Source of the DNA: Nitrospirota bacterium
Lineage (GTDB): Bacteria > Nitrospirota > Thermodesulfovibrionia > Thermodesulfovibrionales > SM23-35
Direction: 5' to 3'
DNA: 64,000 bases
Assembly: GCA_014859105.1 (NCBI GenBank)
Contig: JACUUX010000001.1
Coordinates: forward strand, 107,315 to 171,314
This document shows positions 1 to 11,759 of the stretch, one piece after another (within the stretch, counting starts at the first letter, position 1; each line of letters starts with the position of its first letter). The notes beneath the pieces are model-generated. The model did no database searches. It saw only the letters and a list, made by a program, of their open reading frames with translations, and had not been told where the DNA came from. The translations under genes were made by a program, and so were the position numbers.

Positions 1-1429
1 CTTTTCCCCAATTTTTTTCAAGAACATCAAAATGATTTTTAATAATCTGCTTTTGTTCCTCAAATTCCTTTAGCTGCTGTTCATATTGTTCTTTGAGGCT
101 TAAGTTGAAAAAATTTATTTCATCAACTGATTTTTTCCAAGCAGTCATTTCTTCATGATAGAATCTTTCCGAAATTGTTTCAGCCTGTTTAATTTTTTTT
201 TCTTTTTGTGATTTAAAAAATTTGTCGACTAAAGAAAATTGTGGTTTAATAAGGTCGAAACGTTTCTCTGGTTTTTGGGGTAGTTCTTTAAAAATTGGCA
301 GTGTTGGCGGTCTTATTTTGCAAAGTTCTGTTTCCAAATTATTTTTGGGATTTGGAATCGTATATTTTTTCGTATCTTTGAGTGAATCCCAACTTGTCCT
401 GTTGTTATTGCTAAGGGCATTAATAAGCAAATCGTCAATTTGTTTTTGTTTTTCTCTCGCCTCTCGTGTTCTTTCTTCCGCAATGTTTAAACTCGCTTCT
501 CTGTCAGCCTGTGATTTTTTATTGTGACAAATTTTTGCCCACTGGATATCCCACTTTTTAAATTGGGCTGCAATCTTAGGATTACTAAAACTACTAAAAC
601 CCCAACAGTTAGTGTAATCGTCCCTTATTACACGGGTAACACCGAGCCCCTTATGTTCAATTTTATAATATGACCAATAACAGTTGTCACTATCCCATTT
701 ATCCAATATGTTGTGTAGATCTTCAAAATTCTCTTCAATTTGTTCAGCAGCTATATTATTTGCCGTTGCGTTAGTTCCAATCTCTTTGAACAATCCAAGT
801 TCTTTTAATTTAAAAAAACATTGGGCTGTCATAGCAGCATCAATATTAGCGTTATGCATATTAGTTATTCTTTTTATAGAATCATTAGGAAAAAAACACT
901 TTTGGTAAAGCTCTACAAGTGTAGGCCATTTATATTCACCGTTTTTATATGGTGGAATTTTACAAAATTTTGTTCCTGTTTTCATAGTGCAGAACATTTT
1001 ATTATCAGGAAAATTCCATTGCATGCCATTCCTTAAAAAGTCAGAATGAATTATTGGAATTTCGAAATCTATATTATGGCAAATCAGATATTCAGTATTA
1101 TTGACTACCTTTTTGAAATTGGCATATACATTTGAAGGTTCTACGCCTTTTTCGAGCATCATTGTTGTAGTAATTCCATGTATGTTTGTTGCATCGGCCG
1201 GTATTTCTACCGGCTGTTTTAAGTAGAAGTTATTATGTTCAATAAGTTTGTATTCATCATCAAACAATAACCATGCGATTTGAACAACATAAGGCCAATT
1301 TTTAAAATCATTAGGAGAGGCATATCTATTAATTGGAAGACCGGTTGTTTCTACGTCAAATACAAGATACTTACAAATGGCTTTTGTTGAATCTTCAAAG
1401 TCCAATTTAACTTCTTTTATAATTGACAT
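1..1429 (-). CDS. DEDDh (DnaQ-like) 3'-5' exonuclease with long coiled-coil C-terminal extension, partial (runs off window)
   Basis: Own translation of minus strand from ATG at 1429-1427, uninterrupted to the window edge: MSIIKEVKLDFEDSTKAICKYLVFDVETTGLP...ATNIHGITTTMM...LICHNIDFEIPIIHSDF...NMHNANIDAAMTAQCFFKL; ExoI/II/III motifs present. Absent from the supplied ORF track because it is open at the edge. Confidence 0.85.
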   Translation of the reverse strand, partial: MSIIKEVKLDFEDSTKAICKYLVFDVETTGLPINRYASPNDFKNWPYVVQIAWLLFDDEYKLIEHNNFYLKQPVEIPADATNIHGITTTMMLEKGVEPSNVYANFKKVVNNTEYLICHNIDFEIPIIHSDFLRNGMQWNFPDNKMFCTMKTGTKFCKIPPYKNGEYKWPTLVELYQKCFFPNDSIKRITNMHNANIDAAMTAQCFFKLKELGLFKEIGTNATANNIAAEQIEENFEDLHNILDKWDSDNCYWSYYKIEHKGLGVTRVIRDDYTNCWGFSSFSNPKIAAQFKKWDIQWAKICHNKKSQADREASLNIAEERTREAREKQKQIDDLLINALSNNNRTSWDSLKDTKKYTIPNPKNNLETELCKIRPPTLPIFKELPQKPEKRFDLIKPQFSLVDKFFKSQKEKKIKQAETISERFYHEEMTAWKKSVDEINFFNLSLKEQYEQQLKEFEEQKQIIKNHFDVLEKNWGK

Positions 1430-1530: not shown

Positions 1531-1594
1531 ACATAACGACTGAACTCACAGGTGCGGCAGCCGTTATGCCGCACCTGTGAGTAATTCGTTATGC
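1531..1594 (-). other. attC recombination site (integron)
   Basis: ACATAACG ACTGA ACTCACAGGTGCGGCA-gccgtta-TGCCGCACCTGTGAGT AATTCGTTATGC: long stem, unpaired spacers, AAC/GTT core boxes; overlaps stop codon of the upstream gene. Confidence 0.85.
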
Positions 1595-4349: not shown

Positions 4350-5225
4350 TTAGGCGATCTCACTCGATAATTTCGCCAATTCTTTGAAATCGCTTTCTTT
4401 AAGAACTCGCATTGGAAAACCTTTCCGAATAAGTTCCTCCGCCTTTCTGTGCTTGGAACTTTTCTCGTGACCCGCAAGTTTTTTTACGTCTTGGTCACCG
4501 ACAACCAGCAATGTAGTTTTCTTTGTTACCCCTGATGCCACTTGGCAACCAAGGGTAGCCGCTAAATCGGCTGCTTCCCGGCGTGGTATTTCAAGTGCAC
4601 CGGTGAAAACAAGAACCTCACCGTAAAGTGCACCTTCGGGATTCCCTTCACGATTAATAGCAAAACCAGAGCTGCTTGCGGTGGGGTCGATTGGTTGGCG
4701 TACCCGCTTGAGCCATCCATTTATGTCTAGTCCGCTCTTATTGGACGCGGTAACAAGGATATGCGCCGCTGCTTTTGCATCTTCCAAGGCATCATGATGT
4801 TTGAAGTCATATCCGAGGATCTGACATACGTTATATAGCCCATACCCTTTCCATGCGCATTCCTCCCATGTTCGGCGGGCCACACGCGCTGAGTCGAGCC
4901 AAATACACTTTATCGCGTTAATGTGATACCGTTGAGTTGCCTGATTCATCGCGACCCGATCAAAGTGTGTGTGGCAAACAACTACTGCGCCTTCGAGAGA
5001 TGATCCTAACGTATCGGCCAATTGTGGGAACTTTGGGGCACCTTTAACAACAGTCTCGTCGATCCCGTGGATAGCAACATTAAAGGCATCAAAATAGTCC
5101 TCTGGATCGACGTAGGTTTTCCATTCATCTGACAAAGTTCCGCTTTCGTACTTTACCAGACCGATCTGGCAAATCGATGCCATATCGGCATTCGCTGTTT
5201 CAACGTCAATAGCTACAAAGTTCAA
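4350..5225 (-). CDS. DnaQ-family exonuclease with C-terminal BRCT domain
   Basis: MNFVAIDVETANADMASICQIGLV...IHGID...HHDALEDAKAAA + GALYGEVLVFTGALEIPRREAADLAATLGCQVASGVTKKTTLLVVGD (BRCT). Confidence 0.9.
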   Translation of the reverse strand: MNFVAIDVETANADMASICQIGLVKYESGTLSDEWKTYVDPEDYFDAFNVAIHGIDETVVKGAPKFPQLADTLGSSLEGAVVVCHTHFDRVAMNQATQRYHINAIKCIWLDSARVARRTWEECAWKGYGLYNVCQILGYDFKHHDALEDAKAAAHILVTASNKSGLDINGWLKRVRQPIDPTASSSGFAINREGNPEGALYGEVLVFTGALEIPRREAADLAATLGCQVASGVTKKTTLLVVGDQDVKKLAGHEKSSKHRKAEELIRKGFPMRVLKESDFKELAKLSSEIA

Positions 5226-5653: not shown

Positions 5654-7455
5654 CTGTAGAAAAAGTCTTTTTTAATAAAATACCTCTCCCTTAAATGTCT
5701 TGTAAATCATTTTTTATAGCAGTTCAATATCAAAGAAGATCATTGGCATTCTTTATTATTATGCTTACTGCTTTACTGCTGAACCATTCTCTACATTCTC
5801 TATATCTATCTAACCACTTCATGCAAAAGCAGTCCCGTATCTATGGATTTTTATCAGGTTATGCACCAGACAATAAAGTTTCCACTGAATGTTCACCTTT
5901 CGTTTCCCCCGCAGGGTGAATCTGTCCAATCCCAAGGTGGAGCGAATATGGGCAAAAGGCGGTTCAGCCGTTCCAAGTCTTCTGTTGTAAATGAGCCGAC
6001 CTCTTATCGAATCAATCTTGCGTTTCATCTTCTGTGTAAATGTTTCAGGTGCACTTTCTGTTCGCCCTTGAAAAAAATAAACCTGGCGTGTTTCACTCGT
6101 ATCAGGATTCCGTAAACATTTCTCTCGTAGTTCGCATATTCGACAATCTGACTTGCGGCCCCGGAATTTGATCGCTCTGTTTCCGTCAACGATTACATTG
6201 CCTCCATTTCGGTACATTCGCTTTCCTGCAGGGCAGATGCAGTGTGTCTTGTCTTCGCTCATCGTAAAATCTTTTACCCTGTATAATACTCTTGTCCCAT
6301 AATACTCCGCTCTCTCTTTTCTAAAACGTTCTTTATACCTGTCAACGCCTTTAAACCGGGGATCACGCTTCCTAAACTGTGTGTCCGCTATGTATGCATC
6401 TATTCCTTCTTCCATGACCATCTTCATGTTGGACTCTGTATGAAATCCGCTGTCGGCAACGAGCTTCGCATCTTCGAACACATCTTTTTTACTACCGATT
6501 GCTTTAAAGTTCTCTCTCGCTCCCTTTACCATAGGCTTAAGCAGATCGTGCTCCTGTGCTGCCCCAAATGCTTCCGCATGCACGATTACCTGCTGCTTAT
6601 CGTCTACTACTGCTACTCCGTCATATCCCTGTATTACCCCATGCGATGTCTTCATCTTCGCACTGTCATTATCCGTAATGTTGCTTTTGATGGGTTTCCC
6701 CCTCTTGCCGGACTTGTCGTCGTTTTGCTTCAACCAATCTTTTATCTTCTTTACCTTCTCCCGAAGGGTATCTGCGTATTGCTGCTCCCACCCAACTATT
6801 TCCTTGTCCTGCTCTATTTCATCTATTTCACGATGCCGTTTGACAATCTGTCGTATGGCTTGCTTCATCTTCTCTTTCTTGTTTTGCAGATCTTCTTTCG
6901 TCCCGCTCCATTCCTTCGATGCATTGGAGGGCAGCTTGCATCCGTCTACAGCGAACATCTCTTTCCCTATCAGCCCCATCTCGTCACAGATCAATAAAAC
7001 TTCAAGAAATAACTTGATTATCTCTTGATCCAGTGATGATATAAAATCAGCTATTGTTGTAAAGTGCGGCTGTGTGTCTGCCGAAAGCGCCATGAAAATA
7101 ATGTTCTCCCTGCAGCATTGCTCTATCTTTCGGCTTGAAGTAATACCCCGTGAGTAGGCATATAGTATTATCTTTAATAGTATTGCAGGATCATATGCAG
7201 GTGCCCCTGTCTCGTCGTTCTTATACCTTTCATCAAACAGAGATAGGTCTATTTCGTTATCGATTAGATAATGAAGGGTGTGTTCAAAAGTCCCCGGCAG
7301 GATCTGTTTGTCGAAATACACCGGGATGAATTTCCCCTGGGAATAGTCATACTCTTTATATCTCGCCATCCGTCCTCCTTCCTACTAAGCGGCCTTTGAT
7401 TATTTTCCCGCAATGGAATGGCGATATTATAAGCCTTTCAAAACTTTTTCTACAG
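5654..7455 (-). mobile_element. IS1182-type insertion sequence
   Basis: Terminal inverted repeats CTGTAGAAAAAGT ... ACTTTTTCTACAG flanking a 516-aa transposase. Confidence 0.85.
5819..7369 (-). CDS. IS1182 family transposase
   Basis: MARYKEYDYSQGKFIPVYFDKQILPGTFEHTLHYLID...YDPAILLKIILYAYSRGITSSRKIE... Confidence 0.9.
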   Translation of the reverse strand: MARYKEYDYSQGKFIPVYFDKQILPGTFEHTLHYLIDNEIDLSLFDERYKNDETGAPAYDPAILLKIILYAYSRGITSSRKIEQCCRENIIFMALSADTQPHFTTIADFISSLDQEIIKLFLEVLLICDEMGLIGKEMFAVDGCKLPSNASKEWSGTKEDLQNKKEKMKQAIRQIVKRHREIDEIEQDKEIVGWEQQYADTLREKVKKIKDWLKQNDDKSGKRGKPIKSNITDNDSAKMKTSHGVIQGYDGVAVVDDKQQVIVHAEAFGAAQEHDLLKPMVKGARENFKAIGSKKDVFEDAKLVADSGFHTESNMKMVMEEGIDAYIADTQFRKRDPRFKGVDRYKERFRKERAEYYGTRVLYRVKDFTMSEDKTHCICPAGKRMYRNGGNVIVDGNRAIKFRGRKSDCRICELREKCLRNPDTSETRQVYFFQGRTESAPETFTQKMKRKIDSIRGRLIYNRRLGTAEPPFAHIRSTLGLDRFTLRGKRKVNIQWKLYCLVHNLIKIHRYGTAFA

Positions 7456-8024: not shown

Positions 8025-8111
8025 GGCTAACGACTTAATTCAGCGGCAGGGAATCTACCATTGAAAAACCAAACAAGGTTATTCCCTGTCCGCTGGAATG
8101 TCTTGTTGTGC
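8025..8111 (-). other. attC recombination site (integron), end of first cassette
   Basis: GGCTAAC GACTTAATT CAGCGGCAGGGAAT ... ATTCCCTGTCCGCTG GAATGTCTT GTTGTGC; R'' is the complement of the cassette 5' core at 10350-10356. Confidence 0.9.
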
Positions 8112-8510
8112 AATCTTTTTTATTCGGTTCATTTTGCGATTGAGTTTGCCTTCCTTAATTTCATGTTCCCAAATTCTGATTACCTGCCACCCTTTCATTT
8201 TCAGAGCTTTTGTTATTTTCTTGTCTCTATTTTTATTCTTTTCAATTTTATTATTCCAGTAATTAACATTAGATGAGGGCATACGGCAATGGCGGGGGCA
8301 TCCATGCCAAAAACAACCGTCAATAAACACTGCTATCTTCAAACGCGGAAAAATAAAATCAGGCTTTCCGGTCAACGGGTAATTGCGTCGCCATCCAACA
8401 ATGCCTTTTTCTTTGAGGATAGAAATAAATTTAAGTTCTGTGGATTTTGTGTTTCTGGACTTTACGCTTGCCATAATCCTTGAGCGTTCGGTCTTTGAAA
8501 ATGTATCCAC
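8079..8510 (-). CDS. vsr: very short patch repair endonuclease
   Basis: MDTFSKTERSRIMASVKSRNTKSTELKF...FPRLKIAVFIDGCFWHGCPRHCRMP. Confidence 0.95.
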   Translation of the reverse strand: MDTFSKTERSRIMASVKSRNTKSTELKFISILKEKGIVGWRRNYPLTGKPDFIFPRLKIAVFIDGCFWHGCPRHCRMPSSNVNYWNNKIEKNKNRDKKITKALKMKGWQVIRIWEHEIKEGKLNRKMNRIKKIAQQDIPADRE

Positions 8511-8513
8511 TGG

Positions 8514-9251
8514 TCACTTGATAATTTCTATCCAAGACTCATCAAACTTTATTGCTTTAAGGATTTCGTCTCGGTCAACTATGGGAGGTTTCTTAATTCT
8601 TATTGCAAGCCTGTCAGCAGGAACGTCCTCAATGATGGTAAATTGAGAGCCATGAGGCTGCCAAGTGAAAATATGTTGCTTGCCTTTTTTGCTAAATCCC
8701 TCCAAGTTGTTTCTTTCATTCCATTGCCACCAATAATCTTCAGCCCTATATAGAATAGTTTCAAATTCAAAAACAGCAGCCTCCAACAAGTCATCTGATT
8801 TGATAAGAACGACAGTCCTGACATGCTTATAAAGTTTGCGGATTCCAGCTACACGCTCGTTCCAGATCGAAAGAACTTTTTCGCCAAGATCGTTTGGGTC
8901 GGCATCGCTGATTTCTCGGTCGCCAAAAGAATAGATGGGGGAGTTTCTTCCAGATATAAGTCGAATTTTAGAGACCGTTGATGGTTGTCTATTTTTGACA
9001 GTCTTAGCTCCCCAAGCTGTTTGTTGAAGAACTATATCGTCTAACCCGACATTTGAGGGTTTCCATTTCGCGCCGACAAGCCTTGCAAATATTTCCTCCC
9101 AATCTGGGCCTTCCAGTCTTGTCGTGCCGCGCGATGCAAGTAAATACACAAGCTCGCGTCCCAAATTAAGCGCAAATTCTTTTGGGAATTTATTCAGCGG
9201 ATAAGGCGACTTGTATTTCTCTACTGTTCTTAATCTTGGCCTTTCTGCCAT
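8514..9251 (-). CDS. putative type II restriction endonuclease (by context)
   Basis: 245 aa between C5-MTase and Vsr, start overlaps MTase; no family motif recognised with certainty. Confidence 0.6.
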   Translation of the reverse strand: MAERPRLRTVEKYKSPYPLNKFPKEFALNLGRELVYLLASRGTTRLEGPDWEEIFARLVGAKWKPSNVGLDDIVLQQTAWGAKTVKNRQPSTVSKIRLISGRNSPIYSFGDREISDADPNDLGEKVLSIWNERVAGIRKLYKHVRTVVLIKSDDLLEAAVFEFETILYRAEDYWWQWNERNNLEGFSKKGKQHIFTWQPHGSQFTIIEDVPADRLAIRIKKPPIVDRDEILKAIKFDESWIEIIK

Positions 9252-10299
9252 ATTTTTTCCCTTTTTCGAAAATCATCATCTGGCCATCAACCATTTGATA
9301 CTGAAGATTATTGATATCGTATTCAACATAGCCGTTGTGCCATCCCTGAGCAATAAACAAATTTCTAAGGACTGCTTTAGCAACGGGGACAGGAAGACTA
9401 TTTCCAGCTTGCTTTCGAGTCTGGCTATAATTGCAGACAATTTTAAAGCTGTCTGGAAATCCCTGTAAACGCAACATTTCACGCATTGTGAGCCGCCTCT
9501 CTCCGTTAACGAGCAAGTAATTATATGAAGCTCCGGCACGCAATGCGCAAGAAAATGGATATGCGCTTATATGACCTGCCTTATTTTCGTGCCAGATTGT
9601 TACTTCTTTCGTGGGCTTAAGTTTTTTCAGGCGATTCTTTCGGATATACTTGGACGCATAATATTGCTCAGGAACATTTTCTTCTAAAATCTCCTTTAGA
9701 GGAATCATGGGGAACCCGCTTTTTGGCCAATCAAATGAACAGGCTTTTTTAAAACCAACAATAAAAATGCGTTCTCTTTTTTGGGGAAGCCCGAAATCTA
9801 AAGCATTTAGGACGCGAAAGTCTGCATAATAGCCTAAGTCTTTTAAAGCTGACATGATGCGCTTAAGCGTTTTGCCGTTATTATGGCCTGCCAATAATTT
9901 TACGTTTTCCAGTAAAAATGCTGGTGGTTTTTTAGCTTCAAGTATGCGTGCGATATCAAAAAAAAGCGTGCCGCGTGTGTCCTCAAAACCCTTTCTGTGG
10001 CCGATTATACTGAATGGCTGGCAGGGAAAGCCAGCAAAAAGCACGTCATGGTCAGGGATGGCCTCAGCCTTGATTGCCGTGATATCGGCTGCTGGTCTTT
10101 CGCCGAAATTTTCCTCATAAGCTTTTTGGCATTCCTCATCAATATCGCATGAAAAAACACATTTGACCTGAATACCGAATTCATTAGCCATTTGTTCAGC
10201 GGCGATCCGAAAACCGCCAATGCCGCAAAATAAATCAATAAATCTAATTGCTTTACCGTTTTTCCCTTCATTATTTGCCATGTTGCTATAGCTTACCAT
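9190..10299 (-). CDS. DNA (cytosine-5-)-methyltransferase
   Basis: FIDLFCGIGGFRIA...FAGFPCQPFSIIGHRKGFEDTRGTLFFDI...LLENVK...FGLPQKRERIFIVGF...RRLTMREMLRLQGFPD. Confidence 0.97.
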   Translation of the reverse strand: MVSYSNMANNEGKNGKAIRFIDLFCGIGGFRIAAEQMANEFGIQVKCVFSCDIDEECQKAYEENFGERPAADITAIKAEAIPDHDVLFAGFPCQPFSIIGHRKGFEDTRGTLFFDIARILEAKKPPAFLLENVKLLAGHNNGKTLKRIMSALKDLGYYADFRVLNALDFGLPQKRERIFIVGFKKACSFDWPKSGFPMIPLKEILEENVPEQYYASKYIRKNRLKKLKPTKEVTIWHENKAGHISAYPFSCALRAGASYNYLLVNGERRLTMREMLRLQGFPDSFKIVCNYSQTRKQAGNSLPVPVAKAVLRNLFIAQGWHNGYVEYDINNLQYQMVDGQMMIFEKGKKYGRKAKIKNSREIQVALSAE

Positions 10300-10481: not shown

Positions 10482-11759
10482 ATGCTATTTTGGTTGATAA
10501 GTTTAATATATATAAATCACATGCTTGATAATTTTAGGAGTTATCTGCTGCAAAAAGGGTCAATAAAACCAAACTATGTCCCTTATTATCTCAAATGGGT
10601 GGCGGATTGCTATTCCTTCCTCAATGTCCTCAATTCTGACCGGCTCGACAGCGATCGGAAGAAGCTCTATTTAGCCGATCTCGGCAAACGGCACGAGGAC
10701 TGGCAGGTAAAACAGGCTGATATGGCGTTGAGACTTTATGATTACTTCCTTTCCCGGGGATTGAAGTCATCGGCCTCCGGGATACCCGTATCGGGTGAGG
10801 ATTGGGCAGCCATCGAAGTGAAGATGCAGGAGGTGCTCCGGCTGAAACACATGTCATACAGCACTGAAAAAACATATCTCCTGTGGCTTCGCAGCTTTCG
10901 TGCATTCGTAAAGGAAAAGAATCCTGCAGAGCTTTCAGGACATGACCTGCAGGATTTTCTTAGCTATCTTGCTGTTGAGAAGAGAGTTTCTGCTTCTACC
11001 CAGAATCAGGCGCTGAATGCCATCGTATTTCTGTACCGCCACATCTTGGAGAAAAATATTGATAATGAATTGAGTGCAGTCCGCGCCAGTTACAGGAGAC
11101 GTCTTCCGGTTGTGCTGACCATACAGGAAATTGAGCGGATTTTTGATCATATAGAAGGTGTACAGCGTCTCATGGCTATGCTCATCTATGGATGCGGCCT
11201 CAGATTGCAGGAATGCCTGAGGCTTCGCATTAAGGATATCGACCTTGAGCAGAATATTGTCATTGTCAGATCCGGCAAAGGGGACAGGGATCGACGGACG
11301 ATTCTGCCGGAGTCACTAAAAGATGATCTCATACGACATATTGCAAAAGTAAAATCTCTTCATGATAAAGACAGAAAGGATGATATCAACGGTGTCTGGC
11401 TTCCGGGTGCACTGGAGAAGAAATATCCGAATGCAGGGAAAGAATGGGCATGGTTCTGGCTTTTTTCTTCCAAATCGCTGTCGGTTGATCCCCGTACTCT
11501 TTTAGTAAGGAGGCACCATATGCATCCTGCATCGCTCCAGAAGGCTTTTTATGATGGACTGAAAAAATCGGGCATAGCAAAACAGGCATCGGTGCACACC
11601 TTGAGGCACAGTTTTGCAACATACCTCCTTGAAAACGGATATGACATCAGGACAATTCAGGAACTCCTTGGACATAAAAACCTTCAGACCACGATGATAT
11701 ACACTCATGTGGCATCAAAAAACATTCTTAGTGTACGGAGTCCGCTGGATAAAATATAA
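10482..11759 (+). CDS. intI: integron integrase IntI (probable start ATG 10521)
   Basis: Tyrosine recombinase with IntI-specific insertion VWLPGALEKKYPNAGKEWAWFWLFSSKSLSVDPRTLLVRRHHMHP and HTLRHSFATYLLENGYDIRTIQELLGHKNLQTTMIYTHV. Confidence 0.97.
   Translation: MLFWLISLIYINHMLDNFRSYLLQKGSIKPNYVPYYLKWVADCYSFLNVLNSDRLDSDRKKLYLADLGKRHEDWQVKQADMALRLYDYFLSRGLKSSASGIPVSGEDWAAIEVKMQEVLRLKHMSYSTEKTYLLWLRSFRAFVKEKNPAELSGHDLQDFLSYLAVEKRVSASTQNQALNAIVFLYRHILEKNIDNELSAVRASYRRRLPVVLTIQEIERIFDHIEGVQRLMAMLIYGCGLRLQECLRLRIKDIDLEQNIVIVRSGKGDRDRRTILPESLKDDLIRHIAKVKSLHDKDRKDDINGVWLPGALEKKYPNAGKEWAWFWLFSSKSLSVDPRTLLVRRHHMHPASLQKAFYDGLKKSGIAKQASVHTLRHSFATYLLENGYDIRTIQELLGHKNLQTTMIYTHVASKNILSVRSPLDKI

What the first reader, a model, noticed from the sequence alone, without database searches (positions are those of the whole stretch)
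1..1429. Exonuclease plus coiled-coil protein in an integron cassette; missing from the ORF track
Seen: DEDDh exonuclease N-terminus followed by a charged tail (WDSLKDTKKYTIPNPKNNLETELCKIRPPTLPIFKELPQKPEKRFDLIKPQFSLVDKFFKSQKEKKIKQAETISERFYHEEMTAWKKS...). The tail recalls the N-terminal region of some Mrr-type restriction endonuclease proteins, so an exonuclease-restriction nuclease fusion may continue off-window.
Basis: partly seen in the sequence, partly recalled or inferred. Interest (0 to 1): 0.7.

Follow-up and report, generated by a model that had tools for sequence, protein, structure and literature searches.

The report
Exonuclease on a restriction-enzyme scaffold
A mobile integron cassette carries one protein in which a DNA-chewing exonuclease is joined to the whole non-cutting part of a widespread Mrr-type restriction enzyme, whose own cutting domain is missing; this suggests that these bacterial defence proteins can change their cutting tool.

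Summary
The ORF is real. It runs off the left edge of the window, and the host contig gives the full 686 codons. Residues 20-215 are a DEDDh 3'-5' exonuclease with all five catalytic residues present. Residues 231-686 align with residues 1-442 of an Mrr-type 'restriction endonuclease' family (PADLOC mREase_IV; 47-48% identity to Bacteroidota members). The ORF stops in the linker just before that family's Mrr_cat domain, 29 bp from an attC site. Its cassette lies between two attC-like hairpins in an array led by an integron integrase and holding other restriction genes. Of 139 fetched ORFs (with duplicates) with an intact module and a closed 3' end, 135 carry Mrr_cat. The four without it are this one (DEDDh in cis) and three next to a SNIPE-type (PD-Lambda-1) GIY-YIG nuclease gene. 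No second DEDDh fusion was found. Best reading: a defence protein whose scaffold targets DNA for an interchangeable nuclease. Architecture is shown; function is inferred. New variant of a known kind.

The parts
1..1429 (-). First 476 codons of a 686-codon ORF that continues 631 bp beyond the window (stop at L002:8684)
   Evidence: GAGGATGAG stretch just upstream of the ATG
785..1372 (-). DEDDh 3'-5' exonuclease domain, residues 20-215 (D25, E27, D121, H192, D197)
740..784 (-). About 15-residue joint (216-230) between the end of the exonuclease and the first residue of the restriction-enzyme scaffold
1..739 (-). Start of the Mrr-type scaffold (residues 231-476 here; 477-686 off-window): small beta domain, coiled coil, then the conserved module; no Mrr_cat follows
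1531..1594 (-). attC-like hairpin between this cassette and its neighbour (the second attC is off-window at L002:8590-8654)
10482..11759 (+). Integron integrase intI (TIGR02249 match 10821-11753) at the head of the minus-strand cassette array

Best explanation
The cassette encodes a single-protein nuclease, probably anti-phage, built by swapping the cutting end of a known family. SHOWN: (1) an N-terminal DEDDh exonuclease with a complete active site; (2) fused to it, from its first residue, the whole non-catalytic scaffold of the Mrr-type mREase_IV family (beta domain, long coiled coil, conserved ~180-aa module with no clear match in the PDB); (3) the Mrr_cat endonuclease of that family entirely absent, with the gene ending naturally at an attC site; (4) the same scaffold elsewhere without Mrr_cat, encoded directly before a SNIPE-type GIY-YIG nuclease gene. 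INFERRED: the coiled coil and module recognise the foreign DNA or its entry state and hold the nuclease there. Instead of a double-strand cut, the DEDDh domain then digests from 3' ends, either the ends of linear injected phage DNA or ends made by other nucleases such as the restriction genes in the same array.
For: Domain hits. Alignment covers residues 231-686 against 1-442 of L019/L017/L018, 45-48% identity. 48 of 52 columns conserved at 90% or more in the scaffold are kept, all 84 conserved columns after it are absent. G+C is uniform across the parts (30-33%). 135 of 139 module ORFs carry Mrr_cat; the 4 exceptions have another nuclease in cis or next door. Tree: P0001 nests within Mrr_cat-bearing Bacteroidota members, the SNIPE-paired pair in another starred clade. 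Models of a relative and of its module: pLDDT 89.7 and 91.8. Setting: intI, attC, C5 methyltransferase, Vsr.
Against: The DEDDh fusion was seen once only: none in 396 Nitrospirota, 177 genomes of the same order, or 397 Bacteroidota, nor in patterned scans of 85,462 species and IMG/VR. A singleton cannot show selection on the fusion. A DEDDh exonuclease does not cut intact duplexes, so it needs ends. The AU test does not reject one shared origin of the Mrr_cat-less modules (p 0.16). No activity was measured, and the name 'methyl-directed' is a database label.
Confidence: 0.55

Rival explanations
1. Accidental chimera without function: two genes were joined and cut by cassette formation, and the ORF persists only because integron arrays store many unexpressed genes.
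For: Only one instance found; it lies about 9 kb from intI behind many cassettes and an IS copy, so expression from the array promoter is doubtful; no sigma-70-like promoter in the 300 bp around its start.
Against: 686 codons without a stop, an intact DEDDh active site and 48 of 52 conserved scaffold columns at 47-48% identity imply long constraint on the parts. Whether the constraint acted before or after the fusion is not resolved.
Confidence: 0.25
2. Remnant of a DEDDh-scaffold-Mrr_cat triple fusion: the ancestor had both nucleases and lost Mrr_cat when the attC site was acquired.
For: The stop lies in the linker before Mrr_cat and 29 bp from attC.
Against: No triple fusion was found in any relative.
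Confidence: 0.12
3. A repair or RNA/DNA-processing exonuclease that uses the scaffold as an adaptor, unrelated to defence.
For: Closest DEDDh relatives are stand-alone genes of about 195 aa in Nitrospirota and Bacteroidota that look like housekeeping genes.
Against: The scaffold family is otherwise fused to a restriction nuclease or paired with SNIPE-type nucleases, and the array holds restriction genes.
Confidence: 0.08

Closest known systems
Mrr-type 'restriction endonuclease' family, PADLOC mREase_IV (PDLC03663)
   Same: Residues 231-686 align with residues 1-442 of family members at 45-48% identity, including the small N-terminal beta domain, the coiled coil and the conserved module.
   Different: Mrr_cat, present in 135 of 139 module ORFs, is absent; an exonuclease is added at the opposite end.
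DEDDh (DnaQ-like) exonucleases; PHROG_192; stand-alone Nitrospirota and Bacteroidota 3'-5' exonucleases
   Same: Same domain with five catalytic residues; 38-43% identity to stand-alone proteins of about 195 aa.
   Different: Fused to a 456-residue restriction-enzyme scaffold.
SNIPE / PD-Lambda-1 (Nature 2026, PMC13190303; Nat Microbiol 2022, PMC9519451)
   Same: In three loci the same scaffold module without Mrr_cat is encoded directly before a PD-Lambda-1 gene (L013, L175, L115).
   Different: This protein has neither DUF4041 nor a GIY-YIG domain. SNIPE is a membrane-bound single-protein system; the papers' passages that I read describe no such partner gene.
Domain reshuffling among phage-defence systems (PMC10952713)
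   Same: Sharing of domains, nucleases included, between distinct defence systems is already described.
   Different: No text found that joins DEDDh to an Mrr-type scaffold.

Membership tests
Mrr-type restriction endonuclease (mREase_IV) | Mrr_cat PD-(D/E)XK nuclease domain after the module | tested here: not met
   Pfam finds RNase_T only; all 84 conserved columns after the module are gaps
Mrr-type restriction endonuclease (mREase_IV) | N-terminal region, coiled coil and conserved module | tested here: met
   48 of 52 conserved columns kept
Mrr-type restriction endonuclease (mREase_IV) | Cleavage directed by DNA modification | not testable with these tools
   database label only; needs biochemistry
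DEDDh exonuclease | D-x-E, D and H-x4-D catalytic set in an RNase_T domain | tested here: met
   D25, E27, D121, H192, D197
DEDDh exonuclease | Metal-dependent 3'-5' exonuclease activity | not testable with these tools
   no assay
SNIPE / PD-Lambda-1 | DUF4041 and GIY-YIG domains | tested here: not met
   no match in P0001
Integron gene cassette | ORF bounded by attC sites in an array with an integron integrase | tested here: met
   hairpins on both sides; intI over its cut-off on the same contig
Integron gene cassette | Excision and integration by IntI | not testable with these tools
   needs experiment

The most novel reading that the evidence does not exclude
The coiled-coil/module scaffold is a general targeting platform of bacterial immunity that works with interchangeable nucleases: Mrr endonuclease in cis (the rule), GIY-YIG SNIPE in trans, and a DEDDh exonuclease in cis (this cassette). 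What it recognises is unknown; the SNIPE pairing hints at DNA entry rather than, or as well as, methylation.
Probability: 0.4. Interest if true: 0.7.

Novelty: new variant of a known kind. Interest (0 to 1): 0.45.

Why it matters
The family is labelled a methyl-directed restriction enzyme, yet its largest conserved part has no Pfam match, no NCBIfam match and no clear match in the PDB. If the scaffold keeps its role when the nuclease is changed, that part is the sensor. Swapping nucleases on it then becomes a direct test of what it recognises, and the SNIPE pairing gives a testable link to defence during DNA entry.

Tried and rejected
Mrr_cat further downstream or frameshifted: none in the 12-kb locus, and only 29 bp lie between the stop and attC. 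Mrr_cat elsewhere in the genome: two distant proteins of other types. A second fusion: P0001 patterns in genome and viral collections gave nothing; plasmids and phages gave only Mrr-type or DEDDh-only matches. DEDDh next to canonical members: one of 99 loci (L096, a DEDDh-BRCT gene 79 bp upstream), judged weak. Fold of the module: no PDB match at E <= 0.001; best BFVD match an uncharacterised siphovirus protein, TM 0.50. A full-length model of P0001 was not requested, because part of it lies outside the window in a locus type that the tool does not list; a relative (L017) was modelled instead. DUF4236-module protein L160: weak match (34 bits), beside tellurite-type genes in some plasmids, with no nuclease evident; kept out of the argument.

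Full report
OBSERVATION. The ORF reported at 1-1429 (minus strand) is genuine and runs off the left edge, which explains its absence from a list of closed ORFs. The window lies at C42:107315-171314 of a held 3.16-Mb genome. On that contig the ORF is closed at 686 codons, L002:8684-10744(-).

ANATOMY. Residues 20-215 are a DEDDh exonuclease: Pfam RNase_T 1.7e-10, PADLOC DEDDh 5.6e-24, PHROG_192 4.4e-36. Its five catalytic residues D25, E27, D121, H192 and D197 are in place. The nearest matches are stand-alone proteins of about 195 aa in the same phylum and in Bacteroidota, 38-43% identical. Residues 231-686 align from the first residue to residue 442 of Mrr-type restriction proteins from Bacteroidota (L019, L017, L018; 45-48% identity). 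PADLOC files that family as mREase_IV. In those relatives Mrr_cat follows at about 458-591. Here the ORF stops in the linker, and an attC hairpin begins 29 bp later. Of the columns conserved at 90% or more in the family, 48 of 52 before the stop are kept and all 84 after it are missing. G+C is even across the parts. This is a replacement of the endonuclease by an exonuclease at the other end, not a double nuclease.

STRUCTURE. A relative (L017, 597 aa, 78-sequence alignment) models with pLDDT 89.7: a small N-terminal beta domain, two long helices of 54 and 91 residues, the alpha/beta module, then Mrr_cat. Foldseek finds restriction endonucleases (MspJI, AspBHI) for the whole model; I attribute these to the Mrr_cat part, because the module alone (182 aa, pLDDT 91.8) has no PDB match at E <= 0.001. 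The module matches no Pfam or NCBIfam family. It is a conserved domain of unknown function.

SETTING. An integron integrase over its curated cut-off lies at 10821-11753 (+), and cassettes run away from it on the minus strand. Both cassette boundaries fold as attC-like hairpins (z -8.2 and -6.4). The array includes a C5 methyltransferase, a Vsr endonuclease, a protein of unknown type between them, a DEDDh-BRCT protein and an EACC1-domain protein.

FAMILY SURVEY. The 80 closest loci among 85,462 species all keep Mrr_cat where the contig allows a judgement, as do the viral-contig members except L115. Over all loci fetched, 139 ORFs have a complete module end and a closed 3' end; 135 carry Mrr_cat (some loci are duplicates). 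The four without it are this protein and three beside a PD-Lambda-1/SNIPE-type gene: L013 (Nitrospirota, 4-bp overlap), L175 (Kocuria plasmid, 1-bp overlap) and L115 (viral contig, module ORF broken in two; there the SNIPE-type assignment is by sequence resemblance to L013's partner). In the tree P0001 lies within Mrr_cat-bearing Bacteroidota members (sister to Algoriphagus, SH-aLRT 86). L013 and L175 form their own clade within another fully supported one. At least two changes are forced by starred branches, but an AU test does not reject a single origin (p 0.16). Absence of a second DEDDh fusion: 396 Nitrospirota, 177 of the same order, 397 Bacteroidota; 313 genomes of the order of L017 were searched with the module and all hits carry Mrr_cat.

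MECHANISM. The scaffold is retained with its conserved residues while the nuclease changes, so the parsimonious role of the scaffold is recognition or positioning (inference). SNIPE cleaves phage DNA as it enters, with DUF4041 binding the tape-measure protein and DNA (PMC13190303); a scaffold encoded with SNIPE may act at the same step (inference). An exonuclease in this position would digest linear incoming DNA or ends made by other nucleases (inference from DEDDh biochemistry, own knowledge). The chief doubt is that the fusion is a singleton.

VERDICT. Observation confirmed, interpretation partly supported, new variant of a known kind. No literature describing this fusion was found in the library.

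Noticed in passing
L013:77-2733(-), L175:5992-8612(+), L115:3377-5918(+): A gene for the mREase_IV scaffold without Mrr_cat sits directly before a SNIPE/PD-Lambda-1-type gene (DUF4041 + GIY-YIG) in Nitrospirota, an Actinomycetota plasmid and a viral contig: a possible two-gene form of SNIPE.
   Followed up: partly
window 4350-5225 (-): A second exonuclease cassette in the same array: DEDDh plus BRCT, also matching PADLOC candidate PDC-S48. In L096 (Lutibacter) a DEDDh-BRCT-like gene lies 79 bp upstream of a canonical mREase_IV gene.
   Followed up: partly
window 8079-10299 (-): Restriction genes near attI: C5 methyltransferase (9190-10299), a 245-aa protein without any family match (8514-9251, overlapping the methyltransferase, possibly its cognate nuclease) and Vsr (8079-8510).
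   Followed up: partly
window 5819-7369 (-) and L002:5511-6535 (-): Two copies of one transposase, the second broken, flank the part of the array that holds this cassette.
   Followed up: no
L181:1159-3216(+), L182:1102-3252(+): Actinomycete members have about 180 extra residues after Mrr_cat that look like a TerD domain (by eye, not tested); L160-like DUF4236 proteins with a weak module match lie beside tellurite-type genes on Pseudomonas plasmids.
   Followed up: no
L158:727-2535(+), L159:493-2388(+): Distant members begin with a helix that looks like a membrane anchor (by eye), reminiscent of SNIPE's N-terminal anchor.
   Followed up: no
L006:850-2037: A same-family genome holds a canonical member split into head (+ strand) and tail with Mrr_cat (- strand): an inversion or an assembly fault.
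   Followed up: no
L002:7960-8424 (-): Next cassette downstream encodes a 154-aa protein with no family match and an E-V-K motif that might be a PD-(D/E)XK nuclease.
   Followed up: no
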